Of a stretch of DNA of 64,000 nt, positions 17,482-62,636 are shown one piece after another. Positions within the stretch are counted from its first letter, which is position 1. The number at the start of each line of letters is the position of its first letter. This stretch comes from Cryptosporangium aurantiacum. Its GTDB lineage: Bacteria; Actinomycetota; Actinomycetes; Mycobacteriales; Cryptosporangiaceae. A program made the position numbers and the translations under genes. Below the pieces are notes generated by a model. That model saw only the letters and a program-made list of their open reading frames with translations. It was not told the DNA's origin and did no database searches. The stretch spans positions 372,001 to 436,000 of the forward strand of contig NZ_FRCS01000004.1 in NCBI RefSeq assembly GCF_900143005.1, given 5' to 3'.

Positions 17482-17506
17482 CAACGGCGCACGGCAGCGG
17501 TAGGCG

Positions 17507-18565: not shown

Positions 18566-18729
18566 GGGTGTCACCTCCGCGTCGCTGTGCGGTCGACGTC
18601 AGCGTCCGTGGCTACTGTTTCGACGGCGTCACACGTGGGTGATAAGTCAGGTTCGGCGGATCCGTCCACCCTCTCGACAACTGGCCGTACCTGCGGTTCA
18701 ACCTCCGGTGAGCGTGGCTGAGAGGTTGG

Positions 18730-20415
18730 TCACTCCGCCGGCACCGTCCGCGCCAACAATGCCTCGATCGCAGTACCGCGGGGCAGCGTCCCGAACGCAT
18801 AGCCGCTCTCGCCGCCGAGCCGCGAGCCGCAGAACGCGCTGGCGACCTCCTCCGGCGCGTGCCGCACGAGCAGCGCGCCCTGCAGGACGAGCGCGAACCG
18901 CTCCACCAGCCGACGGGCCCGGTACTCCCACTCGTGGGTGTCGGACAGCTCGTTGCGCAACGCGGCCCACGCCGCGTCCAGGCGGCTGTCGGCTCCGTGC
19001 ACCTGCTCGATCTCCTCGGTGTACGCGGCGAACGCGGCGGGCTCGCGACCCAGCGCCCGCAGGACGTCGAGCGCATTGACGTTGCCGGAGCCCTCCCAGA
19101 TGCCGTTGAGCGGCGCCTCCCGGTAGAGCCGGGGCATGCCGCTCTCCTCGACGTATCCGTTGCCGCCGAGGCATTCGAGTGCCTCCGCGACGAACGCGGG
19201 CTGCCGCTTGCACACCCAGTACTTGCCGATCGCGGTGGCCAGCCGGGAAAACGCCCGCTCCTGATCGTCGCCCGCGAAGGCCCGGTCGACCGCGCCGGCC
19301 AGCCGGAGCGCGAGCGTGGTGGCGGCTTCCGACTCCAGTGCCAGGTCGGCCAGCACGTTGCCCATCAGCGGCTGGTCCACCAGACGCCGCCCGAACGCCG
19401 AGCGGTGGCGCGTGTGGTGGACGGCCTGAACCAGCGCGGCACGCATCCCCGCCGCGGAACCGACGACGTTGTCCAGCCGGGTCAGCGACACCATCTCGAT
19501 GATCGTCCGGACGCCCCGCCCCTCGGGCCCGACCAGCCAGGCCACGGTGTCGTCGAACTCCGGCTCCGAGCTCGCGTTGCTCCGGTTGCCCAGTTTGTCC
19601 TTGAGACGCTGGATCCGGAACGTGTTCCGGGTGCCGTCCGGCAGGATGCGCGGCACCAAGAAGCAGGACAGCCCACCCGGCGCCTGCGCCAGGACCAGGA
19701 ACACGTCGTTCATCGGCGCGCTCGTGAACCACTTGTGGCCGCGCAGCCGCCAGGTGCCGTCCCCGGCGAGCCGCGCGATGGTCGTGTTCGAGCGGACGTC
19801 GGATCCGCCCTGCTTCTCGGTCATACCCATGCCCGCGAGCAGACCGCGCTTGGTCGTCGGCACTCGCAGGCCGAAGTCGTAGACCCGGCTGGCCAGCAGC
19901 GGTTCGTAGACCTCGGCGAGGTCGGGGGTGGAGCGCAGCGCGGGCACCGCGGCGTACGTCATCGACAGCGGACACAGGTGCCCCGCCTCGAGCTGCCCCT
20001 GGACCAGCAGCCCGGCCGCCCGTGCCACGTGCGCGCCGACCCGGTCGTCGGCCCACGGCGTCGCGCCGAGGCCTGCCCCGACCGAGACGTCCAGCAGCCG
20101 GTGCCAGGACGGGTGGAACTCGACCTCGTCGATCCGGTGGCCGTACCGGTCGTGGGTGCGCAGCACCGGCTCGTGGCGGTTGGCTTCGTCGGCCCAGGTC
20201 TGCGCTTCGGCGCTACCGGCGATCCGCCCCAGCTGGTGCAACTCGGGCAGGAACCAGGACGCGCCCTCCCGGACGACGCCCGCGAGCAGCGCCGGATCGT
20301 CGGCCACGTCGTGGCCGACGAGCGGCGGAGGCTGGTTGGTGACCTGGTGCGTGCCCGCACCGGCGGCCGGAGCGGCCGAGAAGACCGGCGATTCGGACGT
20401 CACGAGCTCGGACAT
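18730..20415 (-). CDS. AidB-like acyl-CoA dehydrogenase
   Basis: 561 residues, the length of the AidB/isovaleryl-CoA-dehydrogenase-like branch rather than the 380-residue short-chain enzymes. FAD-dependent flavoprotein fold with MTEKQGGSDVRSNTT (family signature), GHKWFTSAPMNDVFLVLA, TRLDNVVGSAAGMRAAL and the C-terminal EALECLGGNGYVEESGMPRLYREAPLNGIWEGSGNV block. AidB proteins bind DNA and are linked to alkylation stress in E. coli; the native substrate is unclear. The ATG at 20415 has GGAGG 8 nt upstream. It overlaps the end of the upstream TetR gene by 16 bp, so the regulator and enzyme form one operon. Confidence 0.9.
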   Translation of the reverse strand: MSELVTSESPVFSAAPAAGAGTHQVTNQPPPLVGHDVADDPALLAGVVREGASWFLPELHQLGRIAGSAEAQTWADEANRHEPVLRTHDRYGHRIDEVEFHPSWHRLLDVSVGAGLGATPWADDRVGAHVARAAGLLVQGQLEAGHLCPLSMTYAAVPALRSTPDLAEVYEPLLASRVYDFGLRVPTTKRGLLAGMGMTEKQGGSDVRSNTTIARLAGDGTWRLRGHKWFTSAPMNDVFLVLAQAPGGLSCFLVPRILPDGTRNTFRIQRLKDKLGNRSNASSEPEFDDTVAWLVGPEGRGVRTIIEMVSLTRLDNVVGSAAGMRAALVQAVHHTRHRSAFGRRLVDQPLMGNVLADLALESEAATTLALRLAGAVDRAFAGDDQERAFSRLATAIGKYWVCKRQPAFVAEALECLGGNGYVEESGMPRLYREAPLNGIWEGSGNVNALDVLRALGREPAAFAAYTEEIEQVHGADSRLDAAWAALRNELSDTHEWEYRARRLVERFALVLQGALLVRHAPEEVASAFCGSRLGGESGYAFGTLPRGTAIEALLARTVPAE

Positions 20416-49051: not shown

Positions 49052-50212
49052 TCAGGTGAGCGAGCAACCGGACACGACCAAGATCGCGATCTTCACCGCC
49101 TCACGCTGCCGCTCGTGCGAGCTCTCCTTGTCCGAGTCGTTGTCGACGGCGAGTTCGATCCGGACGATGATCGCCACGCGCTGGATCTCCAGCGGGTTGA
49201 TGACGTTGTCCCGGACGTACTCCGCGTCGGCGTTCTCCGCCTCGGCGAGCGCTTCCTCCGCTGCGGCCTCGTCCTCGGCGAGCGCCTCCTCGTTCGCGTC
49301 GACGACCTCCTGCGCGTCCTCGGGCAGCTCACCCGCCGCGGCGTCGGCCGACTCCGAGGCCTCCACGGACTCGGTCGCCTCCACCGACTCGGTCGCCCCC
49401 GCCGGCTCCGAGGACTCGGCGGCCTCCGCGGACTCGGCAGCTTCCGCGGCTTCCGCGGCCTCCGGGACGTACGCCCCGACGTCCTGACACTGGATCAGCC
49501 CCGGGTCCGCCGCAGCCGGGTCCTCCGTCGCCGCGGGGTCTTCGGTAGCAGCAGGATCCTCGGTAGCGGCCGGGTCCTCCGTCGCCGCCGGATCGTCCGC
49601 CGCGGCACCGTGCTCCGCAGCCGCCGCGTCGTCCGCAGCAGCAGGATCCTCGGTAGCGGCCGGGTCATCCGTCGCCGCCGGGTCCTCGGTGGCCGCCGGA
49701 TCGTCGGTTGCCGCCGGGTCCTCGGTGGCCGACGGGTCCGCGCTCGCGGCCGCATCCGCCGGCTCGACGGCGCACTCCCCCAACGCCTCTTCATCAAGAT
49801 CAGGCGCCTCGGCCGCCCGGCCGATCGCGATCTCGATGCGCTGGATCGCCGCCTGCCGCTTCGACGCGAGCGGGCCGAGGATCGCGTTCTGGACGAAGTT
49901 CGCCCCGCCCTGGCCGACCGTCGACTCGAGCCGCGCCTGCGCCTCGGCGACCTGCGTCTCCAGCAGAGCGACGTTCCGCGCGACCTCGTTCTGGGCCTGC
50001 TCCGGCACCTCGGTCAGTTCACCCGCCACGTCCGGGCAGACGATCTGGTCGGCCGCGGGGTCGGCCGTGGCGCTCACCGTCGCGGTGGCTTCCGCGTTCG
50101 AATCCATGCTCGCGGACGACACGCCGACCATCGCTGCGGCCGTCAGCGCGAGCGCTGTTCCGCCGACGGCGACGCCTATCGCCCACCCCGACCGTCCTGA
50201 TTGTTTTCGCAA
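49052..50212 (-). CDS. Exported protein with 88-residue Cys module and Asp/Glu/Pro/Ala linker (paralog A)
   Basis: 386 residues from a TTG start at 50212 (GGGAGAG site, 6 nt spacing); the start is set by homology to the neighbour. Short basic start (RKQSGRSGW), a membrane/signal helix (about 11-32), then module 1 between Cys59 and Cys147 (88 residues apart) with LLETQVAEAQARLESTVGQG and NFVQNAILGPLASKR. A linker of about 80 residues follows, mostly EDPAATDDP repeats. The C-terminal module (Cys242 to Cys383) has diverged, with a long acidic Ala/Glu insertion but a recognisable YVRDNVINPLEIQR. Family not recognised. Adjacent to its paralog on the same strand; each has its own terminator. Confidence 0.8.
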   Translation of the reverse strand: MRKQSGRSGWAIGVAVGGTALALTAAAMVGVSSASMDSNAEATATVSATADPAADQIVCPDVAGELTEVPEQAQNEVARNVALLETQVAEAQARLESTVGQGGANFVQNAILGPLASKRQAAIQRIEIAIGRAAEAPDLDEEALGECAVEPADAAASADPSATEDPAATDDPAATEDPAATDDPAATEDPAAADDAAAAEHGAAADDPAATEDPAATEDPAATEDPAATEDPAAADPGLIQCQDVGAYVPEAAEAAEAAESAEAAESSEPAGATESVEATESVEASESADAAAGELPEDAQEVVDANEEALAEDEAAAEEALAEAENADAEYVRDNVINPLEIQRVAIIVRIELAVDNDSDKESSHERQREAVKIAILVVSGCSLT

Positions 50213-50379
50213 TTCCGCTCTCCCTTTGCGTGGCACCCGGAAGGGCCTCCATGCGCCCACGCAATCCAGAACGGGGACCCGTCCGCGGGGGTTCAGCAAA
50301 ATCGGAAAAATGAATAGTGAGTCGCCGGAACCATGAAGAAAGGGGTCAAGCGGCTCACGAAAAATTGCGCACACAAACG

Positions 50380-50419
50380 CAGGGAGCATCGCCGGCGGGG
50401 TGACCGGCGATGCTCCCTG
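50380..50419 (-). terminator. Terminator between the two exported paralogs
   Basis: A 16-bp perfect stem (cagggagcatcgccgg and its complement) with an 8-nt loop, about 70 bp after the stop of paralog B, followed on the minus strand by a T-rich stretch. Confidence 0.75.
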
Positions 50420-50491
50420 GGATGGCCTGAGCCCGGTAACCGGGATCAGATCACGCGGACCGCCACAGACCGCGTAATCGTACTTCCGAAC

Positions 50492-51307
50492 TCAGGCGAG
50501 TGAACAGACCGACAGCGCAGCGACATCCAGCTCGGGGCGCGCAGCGTGCCGACCGATCGAGATTTGGATTCGGTCGATGGTGGCTGCTCGCTTTCCGGCG
50601 AGCGGCCCAAGAATTGCATTTTGGACGAAGTTCGGTCCTCCTTCTCCCGCGGACGTCACAAGTCGGTTCTCGGCCTCACTGATCTGCGTCTCGAGCAACG
50701 CCAGATTGCGCTCCACCTCCGCCTGTGCCTGCGCCGGTACAGCCGGCAGCTCACTCTCCACGTCGGGGCACGAGATGCTCTGAGCAGCAGCGTCGTCCCC
50801 GTTATCCGCATCGTCTGCAGCCGGTGCGGACGTCTGCGGCGCCGTCGGCGCCTCGGTCGTCGGTGCGGTGGTCGCCGGAGCGGCACCGCCGTCTTCCACG
50901 GTGCAGGTCGACAGCTCGGCGATCGGCAGGTTCGGACGCGGGGCGGTGCGTCCGATCGCGATCGCGATGCGGTCGATCGCCGCTCCGCGTTTCGAGGCCA
51001 GCGGACCCAGGATCGCGTTCTGCACGAAGTTGGGGCCACCCTGGCCGACCGTTGATTCCAATCGATTCTGCGCTTCCGAAATCTGCGTTTGCAGCAACGT
51101 CAGATTCCGGTCGACCTCGGCTTGTGCCGAGGCCGGAATGGCGGGTAGTCGACTCGCGACGTCCGGACAGGTGATCTGCCCCACAGACGCTGTTTCGCTC
51201 TCCTCGCTCGCCGACGAAACACCCACCATAGCCGCGCCGGTCAGCGCGAGCGTGACACCACCGATGACAACGCCCAAGGTCCAACCTGACCGACCATGTT
51301 TACGCAT
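50492..51307 (-). CDS. Exported protein with two identical-length 88-residue Cys modules (paralog B)
   Basis: 271 residues from the ATG at 51307 (AGGAGA site). Start MRKHGRSGW, a membrane/signal helix (about 10-32), then two tandem modules: Cys47 to Cys135 and Cys180 to Cys268, each exactly 88 residues apart. Each contains CPDV..LP, AQAEV-RN-LLxTQISEAxNRL, then GGPNFVQNAILGPLAxKR and IDRI-I-IGR. The two copies are clearly related. A Thr/Ala/Pro linker joins them. The paired Cys suggest a disulfide per module. No known family recognised; probably extracytoplasmic and membrane-tethered. Confidence 0.85.
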   Translation of the reverse strand: MRKHGRSGWTLGVVIGGVTLALTGAAMVGVSSASEESETASVGQITCPDVASRLPAIPASAQAEVDRNLTLLQTQISEAQNRLESTVGQGGPNFVQNAILGPLASKRGAAIDRIAIAIGRTAPRPNLPIAELSTCTVEDGGAAPATTAPTTEAPTAPQTSAPAADDADNGDDAAAQSISCPDVESELPAVPAQAQAEVERNLALLETQISEAENRLVTSAGEGGPNFVQNAILGPLAGKRAATIDRIQISIGRHAARPELDVAALSVCSLA

Positions 51308-51514
51308 TCGTTCTCCTGAGTCCGGCGCACCCGGATGGGCTTCGGAGGTGCCCACGCCCTTCAGACGGAAAGGCGCGGCGTCCGGTTCAGCGGGAATTCG
51401 AGAACGGTGGGAAAGCGCGCCGACCAGCCGGAACGCGTCCGACCCGGCAACCGCACGGCGGTGCCCGACCGTCATCCTGGAGGGGCAACGTCCCAGCCCG
51501 GAGGTCGGCCCCCC

Positions 51515-52591
51515 ATGCAGCGAACCCGTACACACCGCCTGGCGGCGATCCTGGCGATCGTGATCGCGGTGCTGACGGTGACCGCATCGCCGGCCAGCGC
51601 GCACAGCGCCGACGCCAGACCCGAGGCGAGCGACTACCGCACCGAGATCACCACGATCAGCCCGGACCCGTCCGGCGTCACGGTTCGTGTCGTCGAGAAC
51701 GGCGCCCGGCTCGAGCTCCGCAGCCGCACCGACGAGGACGTCGAGGTTCGCGGCTACTCCGGCGAGCCGTACCTGCGGATCTCGCCGGATGGCGTCTGGA
51801 CCAACACCCGCTCACCGGCGACCTGGATCAACGCCACCGCCGACGGCAAGAGCCCGGTACCGGCGAGCGCCCGTGTCGACACCGCGGCCGCTCCCGAGTG
51901 GAAGAAGATCGGCTCGGAGCCGGTCGTCCGCTGGCACGACCACCGCTCGCACTGGATGAGCACCAGCCCTCCGCCGGCCGTCACCGCGGCGCCGGACTCG
52001 CCGCACCGGATCGCGTCCTGGACGGTCGCGCTCGTCGTCGCCGGCACGCCGACCACGGTGAGCGGCACGCTGGACTACGAACCGCCACCGGCCACCCCGC
52101 TGTGGTGGGTGACGGTCGTGCTGGTGGCTGCGGCCCTGTTCGCGCTCACCTACTTCGCCGGGGGACGCCCGGCAGCGCGCCATCTCGTCACGGCAGCCCT
52201 CGGGGTGGCCGCCGTGGCCGAGATCGCCGATGCGGTCGGTCGCACGATCACCGAGGGCGCCACCGGCTTCGGTGTGGTGACCGGTGTGCTCACCGGGCAG
52301 GGCGTCGGCGTGCTGGTGTCGCTGGCCGCGCTGGTGGCCGCCGTGCTGGCGAGCCGGGGCTGGGAGGCCGGTCCGTTCGCGGTCGCGTTCGGCGGGGTGT
52401 GCCTGGCGCTGCTGGGCGGGCTCCCGGACTACGAGACGTTCGCCCACGCGGTGCCGCCGGTGCCGTGGCCGGGGCTGGTCGCTCGCCTGCTGACCGTGGC
52501 CGTGCTCGGGTTCTCGGTCGGCGCCGCGCTGAGCGGGTGGTGGTGGCTTCTGCACGCCCGCCGAGTGAACACCGCACTCAGCCAGACCTGA
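51515..52591 (+). CDS. Membrane protein with exported N-terminal beta domain
   Basis: 358 residues from the ATG at 51515 (GGAGG, 9 nt). A cleavable-looking signal peptide (TVTASPASA) would leave a mature N-terminus HSAD. A beta-rich extracytoplasmic domain (about 35-190: VRVVENGARLELRS, EVRGYSGEPYLRIS, SGTLDYEPP) is followed by about five membrane helices. A mature N-terminal His recalls copper-binding CopC-like proteins but the fold is not established. The stop codon overlaps the convergent MaoC gene by 14 bp. Confidence 0.75.
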   Translation: MQRTRTHRLAAILAIVIAVLTVTASPASAHSADARPEASDYRTEITTISPDPSGVTVRVVENGARLELRSRTDEDVEVRGYSGEPYLRISPDGVWTNTRSPATWINATADGKSPVPASARVDTAAAPEWKKIGSEPVVRWHDHRSHWMSTSPPPAVTAAPDSPHRIASWTVALVVAGTPTTVSGTLDYEPPPATPLWWVTVVLVAAALFALTYFAGGRPAARHLVTAALGVAAVAEIADAVGRTITEGATGFGVVTGVLTGQGVGVLVSLAALVAAVLASRGWEAGPFAVAFGGVCLALLGGLPDYETFAHAVPPVPWPGLVARLLTVAVLGFSVGAALSGWWWLLHARRVNTALSQT

Positions 52592-53402
52592 GGCACCCCG
52601 CGCGCAGCACCGGGCGGCGTCGGCGGTTCAGCACCTCGAACCCGGCACCGACGCCGGTCGGGTACCAGCGCACGGTCAGCACGTCGCCGGGGAAGACCGG
52701 GCGGGCGAACTCGGTGGTCAGCCGCCCCACCTCGGCGCCGGGCACCTCGTGCTCCAGCGCGTGGCAGGTCAGCGCCAGCGTGCACAGGCCGTGCAGGATC
52801 GGCGCGGCGAACCCGATCCGGCGCGCCGCTGCGGCGTCCAGGTGGATCGGGTTGCGGTCGCCGGTGGCGTCCGCGTACCGCACGGCCTGGTCGCGGTCGA
52901 CGGTCACGGTCAGCGCACGCTCCGGGCCGACGGCGGGGTCCGGCAGCTCGGCGCCGGGTTGCGGCTCGGTGAACGGGTTCTCAGCGGACGACCCTGCGAC
53001 GAGGAACGTGCCGGACTGTTCGGCCAGCCGCTGCCCGTCCGGGCTGGACGCCGTTCCCTGCAGTTCCACCGTCGCGCCTTGCGGTGTGTGCCGGAGGGCT
53101 ACGACCCCGGCGTCCACCAGCACGTGCGAGCCCGCGCGGACGGGTGCGTGGAGCACGATCGAGTGACCGAGGTGCACCAGCCGGCCGGTGACCCGGTCGC
53201 CGAGGAACTCGGTGAAGAAGTCCCGGGCCACCGCCCCGAACGGGACGCAGGTCCAGACCGGGGACGCCACGTCGCCGGCCAGCCGGTCGGGCCGCTGGTC
53301 GGCCGTCGCCGCCGCGTACCGGGCCAGGCCGGACCGTTCGGCCACTCCACGGTGCGATCCCCGCCAGCCGCGCAGCGCCGAGCCGTCCAGGACGATCGTC
53401 AC
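52578..53402 (-). CDS. MaoC-like (double hotdog) dehydratase/hydratase
   Basis: 274 residues from a GTG that overlaps the acpS stop (GTGA). N-terminal hotdog half (FTEFLGDRVTGRLVHLGHS) and C-terminal MaoC half with YADATGDRNPIHLDAAAARRIGFAAPILHGLCTLAL, the hydratase signature with catalytic Asp/His, and RLTTEFARPVFPGD. In this cluster it would act on 3-hydroxyacyl-ACP to form enoyl-ACP. Last gene of the biosynthetic operon. Confidence 0.88.
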   Translation of the reverse strand: MTIVLDGSALRGWRGSHRGVAERSGLARYAAATADQRPDRLAGDVASPVWTCVPFGAVARDFFTEFLGDRVTGRLVHLGHSIVLHAPVRAGSHVLVDAGVVALRHTPQGATVELQGTASSPDGQRLAEQSGTFLVAGSSAENPFTEPQPGAELPDPAVGPERALTVTVDRDQAVRYADATGDRNPIHLDAAAARRIGFAAPILHGLCTLALTCHALEHEVPGAEVGRLTTEFARPVFPGDVLTVRWYPTGVGAGFEVLNRRRRPVLRAGCLRSG

Positions 53403-53776
53403 GGCCCCATCACCACCGCCGCGTAGACGTGCCCGTCCGCGGCGCCCCAGCGGCCGACGCCCGAGAACGCGCCGGGCCAGTCGACGCGGACGCCGGAGAA
53501 CGACGTCAGCCCGACCCCGTCGACCAGCGCGTCCAGCACCGGGCTGACCGCGTCCGACGGCGTGACCGATACCCCGCTCCACCGGAACCCGGGCGGGCGG
53601 CCGCCGACCGCCTTGACCGTGGCTTCCTTCACCGCGAACAGCGCGGCGACCCGCACCGTGCTCGCCGCCCAGGAAGCCTCGGCCGGCGAGCCGATCGTCC
53701 GACGCAGCCGGCCGCCGTACCGCGCGACCAGCCGCGCGACCCGATCGACCTCCACGACGTCAATCCCGACGCTCAT
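53399..53776 (-). CDS. acpS: Holo-[acyl-carrier-protein] synthase
   Basis: 125 residues. AcpS-type 4'-phosphopantetheinyl transferase that converts apo-ACP to holo-ACP. GIDVVEVDRV with the metal-binding Asp, and FAVKEATVKAVGGR with the metal-binding Glu, are intact. Overlaps the hydrolase upstream and MaoC downstream by 4 bp each, so it is likely dedicated to the ACP at 60040-60348. Confidence 0.93.
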   Translation of the reverse strand: MSVGIDVVEVDRVARLVARYGGRLRRTIGSPAEASWAASTVRVAALFAVKEATVKAVGGRPPGFRWSGVSVTPSDAVSPVLDALVDGVGLTSFSGVRVDWPGAFSGVGRWGAADGHVYAAVVMGP

Positions 53777-54555
53777 GCGACGTAGGGCCGGGCGACGCAG
53801 TAGTCGAGGAACGCGGTCAGGTCGGCGTGGTACTCATCGGCCCGCTCGTACATCGGCGCGTGTCCGCAGCGGTCGTAGACGACCAGCCGCGCGTCGGACA
53901 GCGTCGGCACCGCGCGCTCCCACGGCTCGACCGGGGTGATCGCGTCGTTGCGTCCCCAGGCGAACAGCTTCGGGCAGGTCAGCGTCGGCAGCACCTTCTT
54001 CGTCGGGTAGCCGCGGACCGCCGCGAGCGCGGAGAGCAGCGTCTCCATCCCGTGCGGGCGGAACACCTCGTCGATCGTCTCCCGGTAGCGCTGCTGGTCG
54101 ATCTCGTACTGCTCCGGCTCGTGCAGCAGCAACTTGACGAAGATGTCCGCGGCCTCGTCGGGGTGACGCACCCGACGGAGCAGTTGGCGGCCGAAGACCT
54201 GGTTGGCCTGTTTGTCCAGGCCGGGTGCGCCGCTGGCCACGATCCCGGCGACCGCGTCCGGGTGCGCGCGGGCCATCTGGAACGCGATCAGCGCGCCGAG
54301 CGAGTCGCCGCAGAACACCATCGGACCGCTGACGTGCTCGCGGCAGGCGGCCAGCACCTGGGTGGCGACCCGCTCCACCGAGCGGGCGGTCTTGCGGTCC
54401 AGCGACACCACCGACTCGCCGAACCGCACGACCGGCCAGCCGTCGGCGTTCAGCCGCTCCCACGTCCGGTCCCAGAGCCAGTCACCGACGAAGAGGGCCG
54501 GTAGCAGAACGACGGTCACCGGGCGGTCGGCCGGGGCGTACCTCGTCGTGAACAA
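53773..54555 (-). CDS. Alpha/beta hydrolase in the biosynthetic operon
   Basis: 260 residues from a TTG start (AGGAG, 6 nt). Nucleophile elbow FCGDSLGALIAF (Ser), acid in WGRNDAITP, His in DRCGHAPMYE: a complete triad. Could be a thioesterase-like releasing enzyme or an esterase. No cyclase signature seen. Confidence 0.85.
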   Translation of the reverse strand: MFTTRYAPADRPVTVVLLPALFVGDWLWDRTWERLNADGWPVVRFGESVVSLDRKTARSVERVATQVLAACREHVSGPMVFCGDSLGALIAFQMARAHPDAVAGIVASGAPGLDKQANQVFGRQLLRRVRHPDEAADIFVKLLLHEPEQYEIDQQRYRETIDEVFRPHGMETLLSALAAVRGYPTKKVLPTLTCPKLFAWGRNDAITPVEPWERAVPTLSDARLVVYDRCGHAPMYERADEYHADLTAFLDYCVARPYVA

Positions 54556-54571
54556 CGGGGCTCCTTACAGG

Positions 54572-54958
54572 TCAGCGGCGGACGGCGAGTGCCACCGCGA
54601 CGGTTCGGGCGTGGCTGATCGAGACGGTCACCGACTCGCCCGGTGCGAGCCGGTCGGGAAGTGCGCCGCGCAGCCGGACGGCCGGCGGGTGGGAGGCGGT
54701 GCAGCGCGCCGGGTCCGGGCAGCGGACGGCGTCCGGCAGCACCTCGACGTCGGCCCAGCGGACGCCGTCCGGGGCGCCCAACGCGGCCAGCACCGCACGC
54801 TTGGCCGCGAGCAGCCCCGCCGCGCGCCCGAGCCCCGGCCGCTCGGCGCAGCGCAGCCGCTCGGCGGCGGTGAACACCTCCTCCACCGGACGGCCGTCGA
54901 GCAGCGCGGCAACGGACCCCCGGGGTGGGACCGCCACGGTGACACACGTGCTGGTCAC
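54572..54958 (-). CDS. Degenerate AcpS-like protein
   Basis: 128 residues from a GTG overlapping the malonyltransferase stop. The end (SVTVSISHARTVAVALAV) matches the C-terminal strand of AcpS (VSISHE-type), and GRAAGLLAAKRAVLAALG lines up with the helix that normally reads AAKEAV-KAL. The metal-binding Glu of that helix is Arg here, and the N-terminal GIDIVE strand is not seen. So it is probably an inactive or altered PPTase-fold protein; the true acpS is 0.8 kb away. Confidence 0.65.
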   Translation of the reverse strand: MTSTCVTVAVPPRGSVAALLDGRPVEEVFTAAERLRCAERPGLGRAAGLLAAKRAVLAALGAPDGVRWADVEVLPDAVRCPDPARCTASHPPAVRLRGALPDRLAPGESVTVSISHARTVAVALAVRR

Positions 54959-55875
54959 GTCGGGGCCAGCGTGGTGAGTCGGCGGAAGGCGCGGGGATCG
55001 GACAGCGACACGCACGGCACGCCGGGGACGATCGCGCGGGCCAGGACCGTGAGCACCTTGCTGTCCCCGGCCTCGACCAGCCGCCGCACGCCGAGCGCCG
55101 CGATGCCGCTCACCACGTCGGTCCACCGCACCGGCGCGGTCAGCTGCTCGACGACGGCGCGCTGAATGGCGTCCACCGAAGAGACCGAAGCACCGGGGAC
55201 GTTCAGGAACAGCGGGACCGACGGCGGGCGCAGCCCGGCGGCGGCGACGACCGCGCGCCACTCATCGGTCGCCTCCGCCATCAACGGCGAGTGGAAGGCG
55301 CTGCTGACGACGAGGCGGGTGACTTTTCGCGCCCCCGCTGCGGTGGCGCGATCGGATGCGGTGGCCACCGACTCGGCCGCGCCCGAGATGACCACGTTGG
55401 ACGGACCGTTGAGCAGCGCGGGGACCACCGGCCCCGGCACGTCGGCGCAGATCTCCGCCACCCGGTCGAGGTCCAGCCCGATCACCGCGGCCATCGCCCC
55501 CGGCGTCCGGACCCGGCCCATCAGCGCTCCCCGCGCTGCGACGAGCCGGAAGCCCTCCTCCAGCGGCAGCACACCGGCGGCGCAGAGCGCGTTGAGCTCG
55601 CCGACGCTGTGCCCGGCGACCGCGTCCGGAACGGAACCCCGTTCGCCCAGCGCCGCAGCAGCCACCGCGTTCACGGTGAACACCGCCACCTGCGTGTTCT
55701 GCGTCAGCGTCAGCTCGCGCTCCGGCCCGCGGAAGCAGAGCGCGCGCAGGTCACGGCCGAGCACCGCGGAGCCGGTGTCGAACACCGCGGCAGCGGCCTT
55801 CGAGGCTCGCTCCAGCCAGTGCCCCATCCCGACGCGTTGCGTCCCCTGCCCGGGAAAGAGAAACCCGATGCTCAC
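54955..55875 (-). CDS. Malonyl-CoA:ACP transacylase
   Basis: 306 residues from a GTG (AGGGGG site). FLFPGQGTQ, catalytic Ser in GHSVGELNAL, Arg in AARGALMG, His in SSAFHSPLM and the GPSNVVISG strand are all present. Supplies malonyl-ACP to the cluster. A paralog of the housekeeping FabD, dedicated by its position. Confidence 0.93.
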   Translation of the reverse strand: MSIGFLFPGQGTQRVGMGHWLERASKAAAAVFDTGSAVLGRDLRALCFRGPERELTLTQNTQVAVFTVNAVAAAALGERGSVPDAVAGHSVGELNALCAAGVLPLEEGFRLVAARGALMGRVRTPGAMAAVIGLDLDRVAEICADVPGPVVPALLNGPSNVVISGAAESVATASDRATAAGARKVTRLVVSSAFHSPLMAEATDEWRAVVAAAGLRPPSVPLFLNVPGASVSSVDAIQRAVVEQLTAPVRWTDVVSGIAALGVRRLVEAGDSKVLTVLARAIVPGVPCVSLSDPRAFRRLTTLAPT

Positions 55876-55888
55876 CCCAATCCCCCTG

Positions 55889-56644
55889 TCAACGCTGTCC
55901 CTGCCAGGTGTTCCAGGAGATCCGCCGCTCCAGCGGCGCCCGCTTGGCCGGCCGGAACACGGTCTTCGTGGTGTGGGCGACCGGCACCAGGCAGGTCTGG
56001 GTGACGCCGTCCGGGATGCCCAGCGCCGCCGCGACGTCGTCCTCCCAGCCCAGGTGCATGCAGGTGAGCACCGACCCGAGCCCCCGGCTGCGCAGCGCCA
56101 GCTGGAACGACCACACGGCCGGGTAGATCGAGCCCCAGAACGCCGCGGTGAACTCCGAGTACGGCCGCGGGTACGCCATCGGCCCCGGCGGACGAGTGCC
56201 GGGGCGCTCGGGCATCGCCAGGTCCTCCGGGCGCGGCCCGACGATGCACGGGATGACGTGCACCGGGATCGCCGCCAGGTGCTCGGGCAGCCACTCCGCG
56301 GACGCCACGGTGCGGCCGGCCTCGCCGGTGGCCTTGGCCCAGCGGCGGGTCCGTCGGGCCACCCCGCGGGAGTGGAACTCCCAGGAGCGGCGGTACGCGT
56401 CGGCCAGCAGCGCGCGCTTGTCCGGGTCGGTGATCACCAGCCAGTGCCAGCGCTGCTCGTTGTGCGCGGTCGGGGCCTGCAACGCCAGCCGGAGGCAGTC
56501 CTCGATCACCTGCGGCTCGACCGGCCGGTTCAGGTCGAGGCTCCGCCGCACCGCCCGGGTCGTGGTGAGCAGCCAGTCGATCACGTCGAGCTCGTCCTCG
56601 GTCGGTCGCCCGTCGACGCGCGCGCCACCCACGATCGTCGTCAT
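55889..56644 (-). CDS. Nitroreductase-family flavoprotein
   Basis: 251 residues. FMN-dependent nitroreductase fold: TTTRAVRRSLDLNRPV at the start, ALQAPTAHNEQRWHWLVI (flavin-binding), and ALRSRGLGSVLTCMH. The ATG overlaps the ketosynthase fusion stop by 4 bp. In a biosynthetic operon it may oxidise or reduce the product or an intermediate. Confidence 0.87.
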   Translation of the reverse strand: MTTIVGGARVDGRPTEDELDVIDWLLTTTRAVRRSLDLNRPVEPQVIEDCLRLALQAPTAHNEQRWHWLVITDPDKRALLADAYRRSWEFHSRGVARRTRRWAKATGEAGRTVASAEWLPEHLAAIPVHVIPCIVGPRPEDLAMPERPGTRPPGPMAYPRPYSEFTAAFWGSIYPAVWSFQLALRSRGLGSVLTCMHLGWEDDVAAALGIPDGVTQTCLVPVAHTTKTVFRPAKRAPLERRISWNTWQGQR

Positions 56645-58944
56645 CCGACCGACGCCAGAACGGCCGCGCCGAACGTCGAGTTCGGACTCGTCGCGGTCGC
56701 GACGACCCGCCGGAGGCCGGATCCCGTCCCCGGTTCGGTGACGTGTGCCAGGGCGACGTCGGGCAGCGGCTCGACCAGGTTGACCGTCGGCGGCACCAGT
56801 CCCTCGGCGAGGGCGACGGCGCCGACCAGCAGGTTCACCGCACCGGAGGCCGCTTCGCACTCACCGGTGATCGACTTCGGAGCAGTCACGGACGTCCGCG
56901 AACTGAACACCGCACCGAGGGCACGCGCCTCGACGACGTCGTACGCCGACCCGGACCCCGACCCGACACACAGATCGACGTCGTCCGGAGTCGTCGCCGC
57001 CCGGCTCAACGCCCGCCGCAGCACGTCGGTCTCCCGGCCCGCCGACGAGTGCGCGACACCGGTCACCTCGCAGTACGCCCGCCCGCCCCGGGCGGCGACG
57101 GTTTCGGCGGGTTCCAGCACCAGCGCGACCGACGCGGCACCGAGTACCGGCCCGGCGCGGCCCCGGTCGTACGGACGCGCAACACCGTCCGGGGCCAGTG
57201 CCTCGCGCTTGGCCCGCTCCCGCAGTACCGGCTCGCAGAGGTCGTCGGCGGCGAGCAGGAGCATCCGCTCGGCCTGCCCGGTGCGCAGGAACCAGAGCGC
57301 GGCGTCCAGCCCGAGGATCGCCGACGACCCGCCGGACGCCACGGTCGTCGTCGGTCCGCGCAGGCTCAGCGCCTGGCACACCGCACCGCCGGGCGCGTTG
57401 ATCGTCGCGCCGGAGAACAGCAGCGCGCTCGGGCCCTCGCCGCGCTCGGCGGCGGTGGCCAGCGTGTACGTGCTGCGGATCGGGCCGTAGCCGGTGGCGA
57501 ACACCAGCCCGGTGGTGTCCCGGCCGGACCGCGAGGCCGGGAGCTTCGCGTCGTTCCAGGCCGCCACCGCAGCCGCCAGCGCCTGCCTGGCGAACGCGTC
57601 CATGTGCCGCCAGAGCCCCGGTGCGGCCAGCGGGCGTCCGGTCAGCGGCGGCGGCTCGACCCCGTAGCCGTCGAGGTGCTCGAGCCGCCGGATCCAGGAC
57701 TCGCCGGACGTCAGCCCGGCGCGCCAGGCGTCCAGGCCGACGCCGGTTCCGCCGACCGCGCCGAGGCCGGAGACCACGATCCGTCCGTCGGTCAGCGGCG
57801 GACGGTCCGCTTTCCGGCCGGGGCGAGTGAGCACCAGCGAGCAGTTGTTGCCGCCGAACGCGTAGTTGTTGGAGACCGTGACCTCGACGTCCGCCGGGCG
57901 GCCCCGGTTGGGCACGAAGTCCATCGCGGTCGGGTACGGCTCGCGGAAGCCGACCGTCGGCGGCACGGTTCCGGTGTGGACGGCCAGCACGCAGGCCACG
58001 GCCTCGATCGCACCGGACGCGCCGAGGCTGTGCCCGATCGCCGACTTCGTGCCGCTGATCGGGACCCGGCTGACCCGGTCGCCGAACAGCGTCGCCATGG
58101 CTTTTTTCTCCATCGTGTCGTTGGCAGGCGTGCCGGTGCCGTGGCCGTTGACGTAGGAGACGTCGTCGACGGTGAGACCGGCGTCGGCGAGGCCGCGACG
58201 GACCGCGCTGATCGCGCCGCGCCCGGACGGATCGGGCGAGGTGGCGTGGTAGGCGTCGGCGGAGAGGCCGTAGCCGGCGACGTCGGCCAGGATGCGGGCA
58301 CCGCGGGCTTCGGCGCGGGCCCGGGTCTCCAGGACGAGGAACGCGGCGCCCTCACCGAGGCTGAGACCGGTCGACTCGCTGTAGGGCGCGGTGGGGCCGG
58401 GCGCGACCGCCTGGAGGCTCGCGAACCCGGCCAGCGTCTCGGCCAGCAGGATGTCGACGCCGCCCGCGAGCACGATCTCGGCGGAGCCGTCCCAGAGCAG
58501 GTCGCGGCCGGTTCCGACGGCGTTCGCACCGGCGGCACAGGCGGTCGAGATCACGACCCTGGGGCCGGTCAGCGCGAACCGTTCCGCGATCTCGTCGCAG
58601 GTCTCGTGGAACGGCGCGTAGGACGCCCTGGAGGCGTCCGGCGTCCCCTGGCACTTACCGAGCACGAGCCCGACCTCGGCTGCTCCCAGCGCAGCCGAGT
58701 CCAGACCCGCGTGGTCCAGTGCCTCCCGGGCGGCGACGACGGCCAGCGCGGTGTTCCGCTCGTCATCTCCGACGGGCAGCCACTCGTCCGGCACCACTCC
58801 GGCGAAGGCCCCGGCCAGCTCACCGCTCTCCGCACGCACCACCGCACGGCGCCCGGCGACCAGGTTGCTCCAGAACTCCTCGGCGTTCCGGCCGAGCGGG
58901 CTGAGGACGCCGACCCCGGTGACGACGACGGGAACCCGGTCCAT
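56641..58944 (-). CDS. Ketosynthase fused to chain-length-factor-like ketosynthase
   Basis: 767 residues. First half (1-375): a complete beta-ketoacyl synthase with Cys136 (STACAAG), His268 (NGHGTGTPAND), Lys300 and His305 (KSAIGHS). Second half (about 388-767): a second KS fold, but the Cys position reads VASGGSS (no Cys), the first His position is GSGSGSAYD, and the second is KSITGEC, so both His are lost. That is the profile of a chain-length factor (KS-beta). In type II systems KS and CLF are normally separate genes; here they are one polypeptide joined at a short basic linker (residues 376-388). Gap to the GcvT-like gene is 4 bp. Confidence 0.9.
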   Translation of the reverse strand: MDRVPVVVTGVGVLSPLGRNAEEFWSNLVAGRRAVVRAESGELAGAFAGVVPDEWLPVGDDERNTALAVVAAREALDHAGLDSAALGAAEVGLVLGKCQGTPDASRASYAPFHETCDEIAERFALTGPRVVISTACAAGANAVGTGRDLLWDGSAEIVLAGGVDILLAETLAGFASLQAVAPGPTAPYSESTGLSLGEGAAFLVLETRARAEARGARILADVAGYGLSADAYHATSPDPSGRGAISAVRRGLADAGLTVDDVSYVNGHGTGTPANDTMEKKAMATLFGDRVSRVPISGTKSAIGHSLGASGAIEAVACVLAVHTGTVPPTVGFREPYPTAMDFVPNRGRPADVEVTVSNNYAFGGNNCSLVLTRPGRKADRPPLTDGRIVVSGLGAVGGTGVGLDAWRAGLTSGESWIRRLEHLDGYGVEPPPLTGRPLAAPGLWRHMDAFARQALAAAVAAWNDAKLPASRSGRDTTGLVFATGYGPIRSTYTLATAAERGEGPSALLFSGATINAPGGAVCQALSLRGPTTTVASGGSSAILGLDAALWFLRTGQAERMLLLAADDLCEPVLRERAKREALAPDGVARPYDRGRAGPVLGAASVALVLEPAETVAARGGRAYCEVTGVAHSSAGRETDVLRRALSRAATTPDDVDLCVGSGSGSAYDVVEARALGAVFSSRTSVTAPKSITGECEAASGAVNLLVGAVALAEGLVPPTVNLVEPLPDVALAHVTEPGTGSGLRRVVATATSPNSTFGAAVLASVG

Positions 58945-58948
58945 CGCG

Positions 58949-60043
58949 CTACCCCTCGGCCTGGGCCGCGTCGAGGATCGCGGTCTCGGACGCCGTGGCC
59001 CAGCTGCTCGGGATCACGTACGGCGCCGCGAGCGTGCGCCCGGTCCGTCCGTCGATCACCACGTCGAGGCCGGCGGCCGAGAGCTCGGCCCGGATCCGGG
59101 CGAGCCCGAGCACGTCACCGCGGCTCGGGCTGCGCAGCGCCCAGATCACCTGACCGACGGTCTCACCGCCGATGCGAACCTCCGCTCCGACCTCGGGCAC
59201 GTCCGTTCCGGGCAGGCTCCAGCCGATCGGCAGCGCGGTCGGTCCGGTCTCGAACTCGGCCGCGACCGCGTCCCGCCCGGTGAAGTTCTCCTTGGTGACG
59301 TCGATCAGCCAGTTGAACCCGGCTTGCAGCGCCGTCGCCGCGTCCACGGTCTCGCGGTGCAGGCACGGCTGACGGACCTCGAGCATCGCGGTCTCCAGCG
59401 CGACCAAACCGGCCGGTACCGCGGCGTCCAGCGCCTCCCAGAGCGCGGGGGCGTCCTCGACGCGGACGAAGAACTTGTAGCCGTACTCGCCGGTGAACCC
59501 GGTCCGGGAGACCGCGAGCTCGCCGCCGTTCCACGGAACGACGGTGGTGCCGCCGAACGGCAGCGTGCCCAGGTCCGGGTCGATCGCCCGCTCGACGACC
59601 TCGGCGGCGGTCAGGCCTTCGACCAGGACGATCGTCTCGATGCCGCGCAGGTCGGTGATCGTCGCGGAGGCGCCGTGCCCGTCGGCCCGGAGCTTCTCCA
59701 GGTGCGCGAGCGTCGTCGACGTGCGCCCGAGCGACGTCTCCAGCCGGTAGCCGTCGTCGGTGAGGTACACCGTGACGAGGTCGACCGGGCGGCCGTCCTC
59801 GTCGAGGATCGCGGTCAGCAGCGACTGCTCCGGGGTGACGAACTCCAGGTCCCGCGCGAGCGCGGCCTGCAGCAGGTCGAACGCGTCGTCGCCGGTGAGC
59901 TCCAGCAGGCCGGCCGCGGTGAGGTCGAAGCGGGCGGCGGCGCGCCGGATCGCCCCGTACTCGGCGTCCGGGTCGCCGTAGTGCGCCGGGACGGGCGTGC
60001 CGTCGACGTCCGCCCACACGGCGGGCACGGTCAGCGCTGTCAT
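58949..60043 (-). CDS. GcvT-like folate-binding protein
   Basis: 364 residues. Aminomethyltransferase fold: start VPAVWADVDGTPVPAHYG, LQAALARDLEFVTPEQSLLTAILDEDGRPVDLVTVYL, the folate-loop SRTGFTGEYGYKFFVR, and a C-terminal barrel. GcvT normally moves a one-carbon unit from the glycine cleavage H-protein to tetrahydrofolate. No gcvP or gcvH is nearby; within a PKS-type operon it more likely uses a one-carbon transfer or has another folate role. Overlaps the ACP gene by 4 bp. Confidence 0.88.
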   Translation of the reverse strand: MTALTVPAVWADVDGTPVPAHYGDPDAEYGAIRRAAARFDLTAAGLLELTGDDAFDLLQAALARDLEFVTPEQSLLTAILDEDGRPVDLVTVYLTDDGYRLETSLGRTSTTLAHLEKLRADGHGASATITDLRGIETIVLVEGLTAAEVVERAIDPDLGTLPFGGTTVVPWNGGELAVSRTGFTGEYGYKFFVRVEDAPALWEALDAAVPAGLVALETAMLEVRQPCLHRETVDAATALQAGFNWLIDVTKENFTGRDAVAAEFETGPTALPIGWSLPGTDVPEVGAEVRIGGETVGQVIWALRSPSRGDVLGLARIRAELSAAGLDVVIDGRTGRTLAAPYVIPSSWATASETAILDAAQAEG

Positions 60044-60348
60044 GACGCGTCCTCCGTCTCCGCGCGGGTCACCAGCACGCGGTCGACGAACGCGGCGACC
60101 GAGCCGAGCAGCGCGCGGTCCTCCTCGTAGACCGCGATGCCGAACTCCGCGTCGATGCCCATCGTCAGCTCCAGCGCGTCCAGGCTGTCGAGCTCCAGGC
60201 CGCGGCCGAACAGCGGCTGGTCGTCGGTGATCCAGGCCGGCGGGATCGGCAGCTCCAGGCGTTCGACCAGCATCGACTTCACCCGGCTGGTCAGCTCGTG
60301 CCGATACGCGGCGTGCACCAGCGCCGCGTCGAGATCGGCGTCTGTCAT
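60040..60348 (-). CDS. Acyl carrier protein
   Basis: 102 residues. The phosphopantetheine site is LELDSLDALEL (Ser in DSL) near residue 55, surrounded by the usual acidic helices. Extra N-terminal helix of about 20 residues compared with FabF-type ACPs. Overlaps the neighbours on both sides by 4 bp. It is the natural substrate for acpS at 53399 and the ketosynthases here. Confidence 0.93.
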   Translation of the reverse strand: MTDADLDAALVHAAYRHELTSRVKSMLVERLELPIPPAWITDDQPLFGRGLELDSLDALELTMGIDAEFGIAVYEEDRALLGSVAAFVDRVLVTRAETEDAS

Positions 60349-61211
60349 GACCGATTTCCTCCGTTCCGAGGGGTAGCGGGTCGGGCGCCGGACATCCGGC
60401 GGCGGGACGTGCCGGTCGGCAGCAGGGATTCGTCGGGCATCCGCTGCCGGAGCGCGTGCCCGCCGTCGACCTCGACCACGGTTCCGGTGAGATAGGACGC
60501 CCGGTCGGACGCCAGGAACGCGACGACGGACGCGACCTCGGCGGCGTCGGCTCCCCGGGACAGCGGGATCCGGCTGAGCACCATCGTCCGGACCATCGGG
60601 TGGAGCTTGCGGGTCATCGCGGTCTCGATCAGTCCCGGCGAGACCACGTTGGCCCGGATGCCGTACGGCGCGAGCTCGGCCGCGATGCTCTTGGTGAACG
60701 ACGTGACCGCGCCCTTGGAGGCGGCGTAGTTCGCCAGGCCCGGCGCGCCGCCCGCGTTGATCGAGCCCAGCGTGACGATCGCACCGCGCCGGGCGGGCAT
60801 CATCAGCTTCGCGGCCTCGCGGCAGCAGAGGAACACGCCGGTGACGTTGGTGCGCAGCACGGTCTCGAAGTCCGCGCGGGACATCTGCACGAGCATCGCG
60901 TCCTTGGTGATGCCGGCGTTGGCGACCAGGACGTCGAGCCGGCCGAACTCCCCCCGCACGGTCGCGAACATGCGGCGGACGGCGTCCTCGTCGCCGGTGT
61001 CGGCGCCGTGCAGAACCGCGGTTCCGCCCCGTTCCTCGATTCGGGCCGCGATCTCCTTCGCCGCGGCCTCGTTGGAGTGGTAGTTGACGACGACGGTCGC
61101 GCCCTCGGCGGCGAGTTCCAGCGCGACCGCGGCACCGATGCCGCGTGATCCTCCGGTCACCAGAGCGACGGTTCCCGGCGCGAATAACGAATTCGAAGGC
61201 TCCGCGTCCAC
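60345..61211 (-). CDS. FabG-like ketoreductase (SDR)
   Basis: 288 residues from the GTG at 61211 (GGGGAGA site). Rossmann SDR: TGGSRGIGAAVA at the nucleotide site, NAGITKDAMLVQM, catalytic Ser in LGSINAG and YAASKGA (Tyr-x3-Lys), then SPGLIETAMT. Reduces 3-ketoacyl-ACP. A C-terminal Arg-rich tail of about 25 residues is extra. Probable promoter at 61282-61311. First gene of the tightly overlapping operon. Confidence 0.93.
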   Translation of the reverse strand: MDAEPSNSLFAPGTVALVTGGSRGIGAAVALELAAEGATVVVNYHSNEAAAKEIAARIEERGGTAVLHGADTGDEDAVRRMFATVRGEFGRLDVLVANAGITKDAMLVQMSRADFETVLRTNVTGVFLCCREAAKLMMPARRGAIVTLGSINAGGAPGLANYAASKGAVTSFTKSIAAELAPYGIRANVVSPGLIETAMTRKLHPMVRTMVLSRIPLSRGADAAEVASVVAFLASDRASYLTGTVVEVDGGHALRQRMPDESLLPTGTSRRRMSGARPATPRNGGNRS

Positions 61212-61281
61212 CTGCGATCTCCCCTGATGATTAGCGCACGTGAATGCCAGAAAGAATGCACGGTCACGGGACGACGGGCCG

Positions 61282-61311
61282 AGGTTACTCACGAGTCAAC
61301 CGACGGGTCAA
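61282..61311 (-). promoter_or_regulatory. Probable sigma-70 promoter of the ketoreductase operon
   Basis: On the minus strand TTGACC (61311-61306) is followed after 18 bp by TAACCT (61287-61282), about 70 bp upstream of the ketoreductase start, in an AT-richer patch between two minus-strand genes. Confidence 0.5.
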
Positions 61312-61409
61312 GGGTGCTCGAATTACCCACTTGACGCCCTGCGGTAAGAGATTCCGAATCCACGCGGAGGTACGGAACTTTCCTATTCTTGTTCGCCGAC
61401 CGGTGACAA

Positions 61410-62636
61410 TTATCGGGCCGGAGTGACCACCAGCGCGGCGTTGTGCCCGCCGAACGCGAACGAGTTCGTCAGCGCGGGCGCCGGTGGCAGCCACCGTGGT
61501 TCGCCGGTGACCAGGTCGAGCGCGGCGCCGTCGGTCTGCCGCGAGTGGTTGGCCACCGGCGGCACCGCGCCCTGCTGCACGGACAGCACGGTGACGACGG
61601 TCTCGAACGCACCGGAAGCGCCGATCATGTGGCCGGTGACGCCCTTCGGCGCGGTCACCGGCGGTGCCTTCACGCCGAAGCAGCGGAGGATCGCGGCGGC
61701 CTCCGCCTCGTCGCCGGCCGGCGTGGACGTGGCGTGGGCGTTCACGTGGCCGACCTCGCGCGGCTCGACGTGCGCGTCGTGCAGTGCGGCCGCCATGCAG
61801 TCGGCCGCCAGCCGACCGTCGAGCCGCGGCACGACCATATGGTGAGCATCACAGTTCGTGGCGTAACCGGCCAACTCGGCATAGATCCGAGCGTTCCTGG
61901 ACAACGCGTGGCTCCACCGCTCCAGCACCAGGAACGCCGCCCCCTCGGCGAGCACAAAACCGTCGCGGGCGGCGTCGAACGGGCGGCTGGCGTCGGCCGG
62001 CCGGTCGACCCGCGACGACAGCGCCCCCAACCGGCGGAACGCCTCCACGACCAGCGGCGAGAGGCAGGCCTCCGCACCGCCGGCGAGAACGACGTCGGCC
62101 ATCCCCGACCGGATCGCCCGGAGCCCCTCCCCGATCGCGACCGTGCTGCTGGCGCACGCGGCCACGTGGGTGGAGACCGGGCCGGTGACGCCGAAGCGCA
62201 AGCCGATCCGGGCCGCGGTGGCGCTGGGCATGAGCATCGGCACGGTGTGCGCGGTGAAGCCGTCATGCCCGGCGTCCCACGACTGGGTGAGCGCCTCCGC
62301 CGCCGACGCGACGCCCGCACCGCCGGTTCCGAACGTCACCGCCCAGCGGTTGCGGGCGCCGTGCTTGCGCAGTCCGCTGTCGCGGACGGCGTCCACCGCC
62401 GCGGCCAGTCCGAGTTCCGCCGTCCGGTCGGCGCCCTGTCTGCCGCGACCGGGGAAATAACTGGCGACGTCGAACTGCGGAACGATTCCGGCCAGATACG
62501 GCGTCTCACCGTCGGCGCACCGCCTGGTCAGTGAAACCCCGGCCAGAAGCGCATCGAAAGCAGCGCCGACGGTCGTACCTGCCGGGCTCTTGACGCCGAT
62601 GCCGGTGACCGCGACACGAATTCGCCCGCCCGTCAC
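61410..62636 (-). CDS. Stand-alone beta-ketoacyl synthase
   Basis: 408 residues from the GTG at 62636. Complete KS: VAACASSTVAIG (Cys), VNAHATSTPAGD (His) and APKGVTGHMIGASGA (His). FabF-type length. Its role beside a fused KS-CLF may be starter-unit condensation, a dedicated primer step or a distinct elongation, but that is inferred. Confidence 0.92.
   Translation of the reverse strand: MTGGRIRVAVTGIGVKSPAGTTVGAAFDALLAGVSLTRRCADGETPYLAGIVPQFDVASYFPGRGRQGADRTAELGLAAAVDAVRDSGLRKHGARNRWAVTFGTGGAGVASAAEALTQSWDAGHDGFTAHTVPMLMPSATAARIGLRFGVTGPVSTHVAACASSTVAIGEGLRAIRSGMADVVLAGGAEACLSPLVVEAFRRLGALSSRVDRPADASRPFDAARDGFVLAEGAAFLVLERWSHALSRNARIYAELAGYATNCDAHHMVVPRLDGRLAADCMAAALHDAHVEPREVGHVNAHATSTPAGDEAEAAAILRCFGVKAPPVTAPKGVTGHMIGASGAFETVVTVLSVQQGAVPPVANHSRQTDGAALDLVTGEPRWLPPAPALTNSFAFGGHNAALVVTPAR

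What the first reader, a model, noticed from the sequence alone, without database searches (positions are those of the whole stretch)
52578..61211. Compact reducing type II PKS/FAS-like operon with unusual accessory enzymes
KR, ACP, GcvT-like, KS-CLF, nitroreductase, MAT, degenerate PPTase, hydrolase, AcpS and MaoC run on one strand with 4-bp overlaps or gaps below 20 bp, plus a stand-alone KS just upstream. KR and DH present with no enoyl reductase suggests a polyene-type or partly reduced acyl product. A GcvT-like folate protein and a nitroreductase inside such an operon are not part of any cluster type I can name.
Basis: partly seen in the sequence, partly recalled or inferred. Interest (0 to 1): 0.75.

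Follow-up and report, generated by a model that had tools for sequence, protein, structure and literature searches.

The report
Compact polyketide operon, split ACP-activating enzyme
An 11-gene bacterial operon that probably builds a polyene-like acid belongs to a recurrent, apparently uncharacterised group of gene clusters, which carry an odd folate-type protein next to the chain-building enzyme and two half-enzymes that look as if they join to switch on the carrier protein.

Summary
The operon is real: eleven minus-strand genes, 52578-62636. Of ten junctions, six are 4-base overlaps, three are gaps of 4-16 bases and one (KS1 to KR) is 198 bases. [quoted passage not shown] It is not a one-off: of 22 other fused KS-CLF loci examined, 17 keep the order KR-ACP-GcvT-KS/CLF-NTR-MAT-PPT-HYD-AcpS, with FabZ, a flavin monooxygenase, a second hydrolase, a SnoaL-like and a beta-helix gene added. 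The window is a deep, stripped branch: MaoC instead of FabZ, plus a stand-alone KS. A MaoC scar at the same site in a congener points to loss there rather than recent gain here. New point: the 'degenerate PPTase' and the 'AcpS' hold complementary halves of the AcpS active site in 18 of 18 clusters, which suggests a heteromeric holo-ACP synthase; two distant loci have the AcpS half without a visible partner. A GcvT-like gene precedes the fused KS-CLF in 21 of 22 loci. Searches of the open-access papers held found no characterised cluster with this gene set. Product and GcvT chemistry are unknown.

The parts
61410..62636 (-). KS1: stand-alone FabF-type ketosynthase, Cys/His/His intact; no match of its own in the 17 core loci
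60345..61211 (-). KR: FabG-type ketoreductase with YxxxK
60040..60348 (-). ACP with DSL attachment motif
58949..60043 (-). GcvT-like protein (PF01571); keeps the E. coli Asp97 equivalent (D88) and Glu192 equivalent (E186), loses both Arg of RDTLRLE
56641..58944 (-). Fused KS-CLF (767 aa): active KS half, CLF half without Cys and both His
55889..56644 (-). NTR: nitroreductase-family flavin enzyme
54955..55875 (-). MAT: FabD-type malonyl transferase, GHSxG
54572..54958 (-). PPT: half holo-ACP synthase; keeps SxSH, lacks GID and KE motifs
53773..54555 (-). HYD: alpha/beta hydrolase, GDSLG; candidate thioesterase (start codon uncertain)
53399..53776 (-). AcpS: half holo-ACP synthase; keeps GID and KExxxKA, lacks SxSH
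52578..53402 (-). MaoC: hot-dog dehydratase with GDxNPxH, standing in for the FabZ of relatives

Best explanation
The operon encodes a self-contained highly reducing type II PKS. (1) PPT and AcpS together form one heteromeric holo-ACP synthase that puts phosphopantetheine on the operon's ACP: AcpS supplies the metal/catalytic half (GID, KExxxK) and PPT the CoA-phosphate half (SxSH). (2) MAT loads malonyl; the fused KS-CLF, possibly primed or helped by KS1, elongates; KR and MaoC reduce and dehydrate each round to a conjugated or hydroxylated acyl chain. (3) The GcvT-like protein, whose ancestor serves a swinging-arm carrier protein, works on or beside the ACP/KS-CLF complex, most likely as a partner protein, possibly with a folate-linked one-carbon step. 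(4) NTR does a flavin redox step on the chain and HYD releases it. Shown: genes, motifs, gene-order conservation, reciprocal motif loss. Inferred: all reactions, the heteromer and the product class.
For: Domain assignments and intact motifs. Same core order in 17 of 22 other KS-CLF loci examined. PPT/AcpS reciprocal motif loss in 17 of 17 pairs, 16 relatives and the window, also with the looser pattern used for the controls; L125 makes 18. Against solved AcpS chains, AcpS matches chain residues 5-73 and PPT 24-126. Passages of PMC3447402 put Asp8, Glu57 and Lys61 of one monomer and Ser111, Asp112 of its neighbour around one CoA. GcvT-like gene directly before KS-CLF in 21 of 22 other loci.
Against: No expression, product or complex data. 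AlphaFold models of PPT and AcpS were too poor to use (pLDDT 40.3 and 40.8). Two distant loci (L031, L073) hold an AcpS half without SxSH and no detected PPT partner in the 20-21 kb read, so the half may work otherwise. The host carries two other ACPS-family genes that could serve the ACP. The Asp97 equivalent is lost in the GcvT-like proteins of L067, L072 and L073, so folate chemistry cannot be the whole reason for the linkage. HYD may be another kind of esterase.
Confidence: 0.55

Rival explanations
1. The operon makes an ordinary modified fatty acid or polyene; PPT is a pseudo-enzyme, AcpS alone or the host's own PPTases do the activation, and GcvT is a structural partner with no chemistry.
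For: Host has two other ACPS-family genes. PPT alone misses key motifs. AcpS halves without a detected PPT in L031 and L073. The GcvT-like proteins of L067, L072 and L073 lost the Asp.
Against: A decaying PPT would not keep SxSH and an HWAGRLAAK block in 16 of 16 relatives, and AcpS lacks SxSH in the same clusters.
Confidence: 0.28
2. The GcvT-like protein uses a tetrahydrofolate one-carbon unit to methylenate, hydroxymethylate or demethylate the ACP-bound chain, giving a branched product (compatible with the best explanation).
For: D88 (E. coli Asp97) and E186 (Glu192) kept in 18 of 18 core-type proteins; T-protein ancestry as an enzyme acting on a carrier arm (recalled).
Against: In the same 18, Arg228 is Met in 18, Arg224 is Leu or Val in 18, Asn114 is Ser in 18, His51 is Gly or Ala in 18; within TGxTGE, Thr190 is kept in 15 and Gly191 in 13. 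Asp lost in three distant linked homologues.
Confidence: 0.25
3. A cispentacin/coronafacate-type ring-forming type II PKS-like system.
For: NCBIfam AmcF hit over its cut-off for the whole fused protein (332.5 against 325).
Against: KS half alone scores 285.5; the CLF half is 389 aa and hits AmcG (157 positions) with 27.6 against 80; no adenylating enzyme or aminotransferase among the operon and flank genes scanned.
Confidence: 0.04

Closest known systems
Highly reducing type II PKS systems (ava/cma clusters in PMC10777205, passages; others such as ishigamide cited in PMC11446937, passages)
   Same: KS-CLF, ACP, KR and DH as free proteins; no aromatase
   Different: KS and CLF fused; GcvT-like, NTR, own MAT and two half-AcpS genes; no aromatic-starter ligase; second KS
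Cispentacin (amc) / coronafacate (cfa) type II PKS-like enzymes (PMC10698177, parts 1-2 of 8 read)
   Same: AmcF is among the best NCBIfam matches of the KS half
   Different: full-length CLF, no AmcH- or AmcC-like gene found; KS alone below the AmcF cut-off
Orphan core cluster in L026-L028, L057, L059-L066, L068-L071, L125
   Same: same order of the nine shared genes; mean identity per protein 35-53% to 16 of these loci
   Different: window lacks FabZ, FAD monooxygenase, second hydrolase, SnoaL-like and beta-helix genes, has MaoC and KS1, and no sugar genes among the flank genes scanned
Group I AcpS (homotrimer) and group II (two-domain) PPTases (PMC3447402 and PMC2148441, passages)
   Same: same motif set in total; one CoA site between two halves
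   Different: halves lie on two separate genes with reciprocal loss
Glycine-cleavage T-protein (GcvT)
   Same: PF01571, Asp97 and Glu192 equivalents
   Different: below NCBIfam gcvT cut-offs (113.2 against 235.85; 149 against 300); RDTLRLE replaced by a motif ending AMLEVRQP

Membership tests
Highly reducing type II PKS | KS with Cys-His-His paired with a CLF lacking Cys | tested here: met
Highly reducing type II PKS | Free ACP, KR and DH; no aromatase/cyclase in the operon | tested here: met
   DH is MaoC, not FabZ
Highly reducing type II PKS | Polyene or reduced acyl product | not testable with these tools
   needs metabolite data
Cispentacin/coronafacate type | KS over the AmcF equivalog cut-off | tested here: not met
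   KS half 285.5 against 325; whole fusion 332.5 by adding the CLF half
Cispentacin/coronafacate type | Truncated cyclization factor AmcG, 2-oxoglutaryl ligase AmcH, aminotransferase AmcC | tested here: not met
   CLF half 27.6 against 80 for AmcG; no such genes among those scanned
Group I AcpS, single chain | GID, KExxxK and SxSH in one protein | tested here: not met
   neither PPT nor AcpS has all three, 17 of 17 pairs. Control: 17 of 25 other ACPS-family ORFs carry both halves in one chain, 6 lack a detected SxSH, 2 match nothing
Heteromeric AcpS (proposed) | Two genes in one cluster that together hold the complete site | tested here: met
   18 of 18 core-type clusters; not met in the distant L031 and L073, which show only the AcpS half
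Heteromeric AcpS (proposed) | Physical complex and joint activity | not testable with these tools
   single-sequence models failed
GcvT aminomethyltransferase | Score over the gcvT equivalog cut-off | tested here: not met
GcvT aminomethyltransferase | Asp97 (E. coli) kept | tested here: met
   18 of 18 core-type rows; its catalytic role is recalled
Nitroreductase family | PF00881 over its cut-off | tested here: met
   63.3 against 23.5 bits

The most novel reading that the evidence does not exclude
PPT and AcpS are two subunits of an obligate heteromeric holo-ACP synthase that arose by duplication of AcpS and complementary loss of half-sites, a two-gene stage comparable to the fused Sfp-type enzymes; it activates a dedicated ACP on which a GcvT-like protein, recruited from the lipoyl-arm to the phosphopantetheine-arm world, performs a folate-dependent one-carbon step.
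Probability: 0.17. Interest if true: 0.8.

Novelty: new variant of a known kind. Interest (0 to 1): 0.55.

Why it matters
If the two half-AcpS proteins work only together, this would be a naturally split phosphopantetheinyl transferase, a look at how two-domain Sfp-type enzymes could have evolved and a tool for switching one carrier protein on at will. If the GcvT-like protein acts on ACP-bound chains, folate one-carbon chemistry would join the type II PKS repertoire. The operon has the fewest genes of the 18 core-type clusters read here, so it is a convenient place to look for the product.

Tried and rejected
Recent horizontal gain was my first reading: the operon is absent in the four other genomes held of its family, and QueA and the convergent gene dn1 are neighbours in congener G003. 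It was weakened when the G003 junction proved to hold a MaoC-like remnant (50 of 63 bases, one gap, score 55; best of 200 shuffles 38; 0 of 100 pieces of that locus reach it). A MaoC gene without the rest at that site is not excluded. In G002 a 2 kb stretch with another long open frame lies there; G001 has no QueA match.

Cispentacin-type function was rejected. Structure models of PPT and AcpS had pLDDT 40.3 and 40.8, so no fold search was run. Promoter and terminator scan uninformative. The search for related loci in genome contigs gave 9 distant GcvT hits of 23-38% identity; I first took them all as unrelated, but on rechecking one, L031 (Streptomyces sp. CT34), carries AcpS-MAT-KR-ACP-FabZ-GcvT-KSCLF-KR like L073; the other 8 show no KS-CLF match at E<=1e-6. 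L031 shows an AcpS half and no PPT partner, which speaks against the heteromer being general; for this I lowered the best explanation from 0.6 to 0.55, raised the pseudo-enzyme rival from 0.25 to 0.28 and lowered the novel case from 0.2 to 0.17. A phylum draw found no GcvT-like match at E<=1e-45 other than the window's own in 396 genomes. An alignment of PPT rows used wrong frames for relatives and was discarded. Two housekeeping GcvT rows (L003, L006) were mistranslated and dropped. In L125 the AcpS half was missed by my pattern (GVDMAE) and read by eye. Five of 27 other genomes with a KS-CLF hit at E<=1e-80 were not fetched (G495, G522, G547, G562, G583). L029 (G071, KS match only) was fetched and not counted.
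Full report
WHAT IS THERE. Minus strand, 62636 to 52578: KS1, KR, ACP, GcvT-like, fused KS-CLF, NTR, MAT, PPT, HYD, AcpS, MaoC. Junctions are six 4-base overlaps, gaps of 4, 13 and 16 bases, and 198 bases between KS1 and KR. The KS half has Cys, His, His; the CLF half has none of them; KS1 is a complete second KS; KR, MAT, HYD and MaoC keep their catalytic motifs (the meaning of the motifs is general knowledge). Among flank genes scanned, upstream are a queuosine-type gene, a MerR regulator, a SAM hydrolase, a histidine kinase and ABC transporter genes; downstream are a convergent unknown gene, two unknown repeat-protein genes, a TetR regulator, an MFS transporter and P-type ATPases. None looks like a tailoring or sugar gene.

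NOT A ONE-OFF. The fused KS-CLF was sought at E<=1e-80 in 200 genomes of family f14 (14 hits), 394 of the class (14 with the window's own) and 397 of the order (13 with its own); the draws overlap. Counted once, 27 other genomes match; I fetched 22 of them. Seventeen of 22 share the order KR-ACP-FabZ-GcvT-KSCLF-NTR-FAD monooxygenase-hydrolase-MAT-PPT-SnoaL-HYD-AcpS-beta-helix (families). One more (L058) is cut by its contig end. Three (L067, L072, L073) share KR, ACP, FabZ, GcvT and KSCLF, with an extra gene between FabZ and GcvT in L067 and L072 and with MAT and AcpS upstream in L073. One (L074) lacks GcvT. Outside these draws, L031 (Streptomyces sp. CT34) has the L073 layout. Within the 20 kb read, 14 of 17 core loci also show a glycosyltransferase and 13 of 17 a DegT aminotransferase match. 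In the two flanks read further, G270 has NDP-hexose 2,3-dehydratase, epimerase, C-methyltransferase, SARP and LuxR regulators and a transporter gene, and G422 a 2,3-dehydratase and C-methyltransferase. The relatives' product is therefore probably a glycoside with a branched deoxysugar (inference).

THE WINDOW'S BRANCH. Mean identity per protein is 35-53% to 16 core members, which share 52-84% among themselves. In the KS-CLF tree 17 relatives (16 core and L058) form one clade with the window as its nearest row, on long branches whose placing is uncertain. The window lacks FabZ, FAD monooxygenase, second hydrolase, SnoaL-like and beta-helix genes and has MaoC and KS1, which have no match of their own in the 17 core loci. 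Dehydration is thus kept by a different hot-dog enzyme while tailoring and sugar genes are absent; the product is expected to be simpler.

HISTORY. The cluster is in 1 of 5 genomes held of its family. In congener G003 the flanking genes QueA and dn1 are adjacent, and the roughly 100-base junction holds a stretch (L122:9192-9255) that matches the end of MaoC (window 52601-52663; 50 of 63 bases, 1 gap) in the right place and orientation. This favours an operon, or at least its MaoC end, present in a common ancestor and deleted in G003.

THE HALF-PPTASES. In one solved AcpS the CoA pyrophosphate is held by Asp8, Glu57 (through the metal) and Lys61 of one monomer and Ser111 and Asp112 of its neighbour; in another, Asp8, Glu58, Lys62, Ser102 and His103 surround the phosphate (PMC3447402, passages). 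In the two-domain human enzyme the site (Ser110, His111, Asp129, Glu181, Lys185) lies in the groove between the two domains (PMC2148441, passages). PPT keeps SxSH and lacks GID and KE in 17 of 17; its partner AcpS keeps GID and KExxxKA and lacks SxSH in 17 of 17 (same with the looser control pattern); L125 makes 18. Matches to solved AcpS chains are likewise complementary: AcpS to chain residues 5-73, PPT to 24-126. Control: of 25 other ACPS-family ORFs from the window's genome and the relatives' genomes, 17 carry both halves in one chain, 6 had no detected SxSH and 2 matched nothing. L074, a different type II locus, has an intact AcpS. Against: L031 and L073 show an AcpS half without SxSH and without a PPT partner in the stretch read. 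So in the core clusters the two genes look like reciprocal halves of one site, which needs only two neighbouring subunits; that they bind each other is inferred. Two targeted searches of the open-access library found no paper on such an enzyme; that is not proof of novelty.

THE GcvT-LIKE PROTEIN. It lies directly before KS-CLF in the window and in 21 of 22 other loci, also in L031; the three most distant of the 22 still match PF01571. Eighteen core-type proteins (16 core, L058, window) all keep the Asp97 and Glu192 equivalents, and all have replaced both arginines of RDTLRLE, Asn114 and His51. L067, L072 and L073 lost the Asp. So the linkage to KS-CLF is older than, or independent of, the presumed folate chemistry. 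I rate a partner or carrier-docking role as likely, and a one-carbon step in the core family as possible (0.25).

WHAT IS KNOWN. Highly reducing type II PKS systems in print (PMC10777205 and PMC11446937, passages; PMC10698177, parts 1-2 of 8; PMC10132072 and PMC13311259, passages) share the KS-CLF/ACP/KR/DH logic but in what I read none has this gene set. The searches named above listed no characterised cluster with it; MIBiG and antiSMASH were not available. The NCBIfam label 'AmcF' that the fused protein would attract is misleading: the KS half alone falls below that cut-off.

VERDICT. Real, recurrent, apparently uncharacterised; a new variant of highly reducing type II PKS. The best testable surprise is the split holo-ACP synthase.

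Noticed in passing
L122:9192-9255 (congener G003) against window 52601-52663: Remnant of the MaoC 3' end between QueA and the convergent gene in a congener without the operon.
   Followed up: yes
window 56641-58944: The fused KS-CLF passes the NCBIfam AmcF cut-off (332.5 against 325) only because the CLF half adds score; automatic annotation may mislabel it as cispentacin biosynthesis.
   Followed up: yes
L031:6890-14917 (Streptomyces sp. CT34): A named strain with a related locus AcpS-MAT-KR-ACP-FabZ-GcvT-KSCLF-KR; its AcpS lacks SxSH and no PPT partner was seen.
   Followed up: partly
window 49052-51604: Two neighbouring genes encode repeat proteins with a shared VGQGGxNFVQNAILGPLAxKR unit and Ala/Asp/Glu-Pro-rich spacers; no Pfam match; homologues at the same site in two congeners.
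   Followed up: partly
L072 (G608) 17146-19972: A distant GcvT/KS-CLF locus sits beside ornithine-cyclodeaminase-like and PLP-enzyme genes and a short gene with a below-cut-off lantibiotic-dehydratase match; perhaps a diaminopropionate-type amino acid joined to a polyene.
   Followed up: no
L073:15843-16091: An AcpS-like half (GVDLVD, KESVVK) without SxSH and without a detected PPT partner in the 20 kb read.
   Followed up: partly
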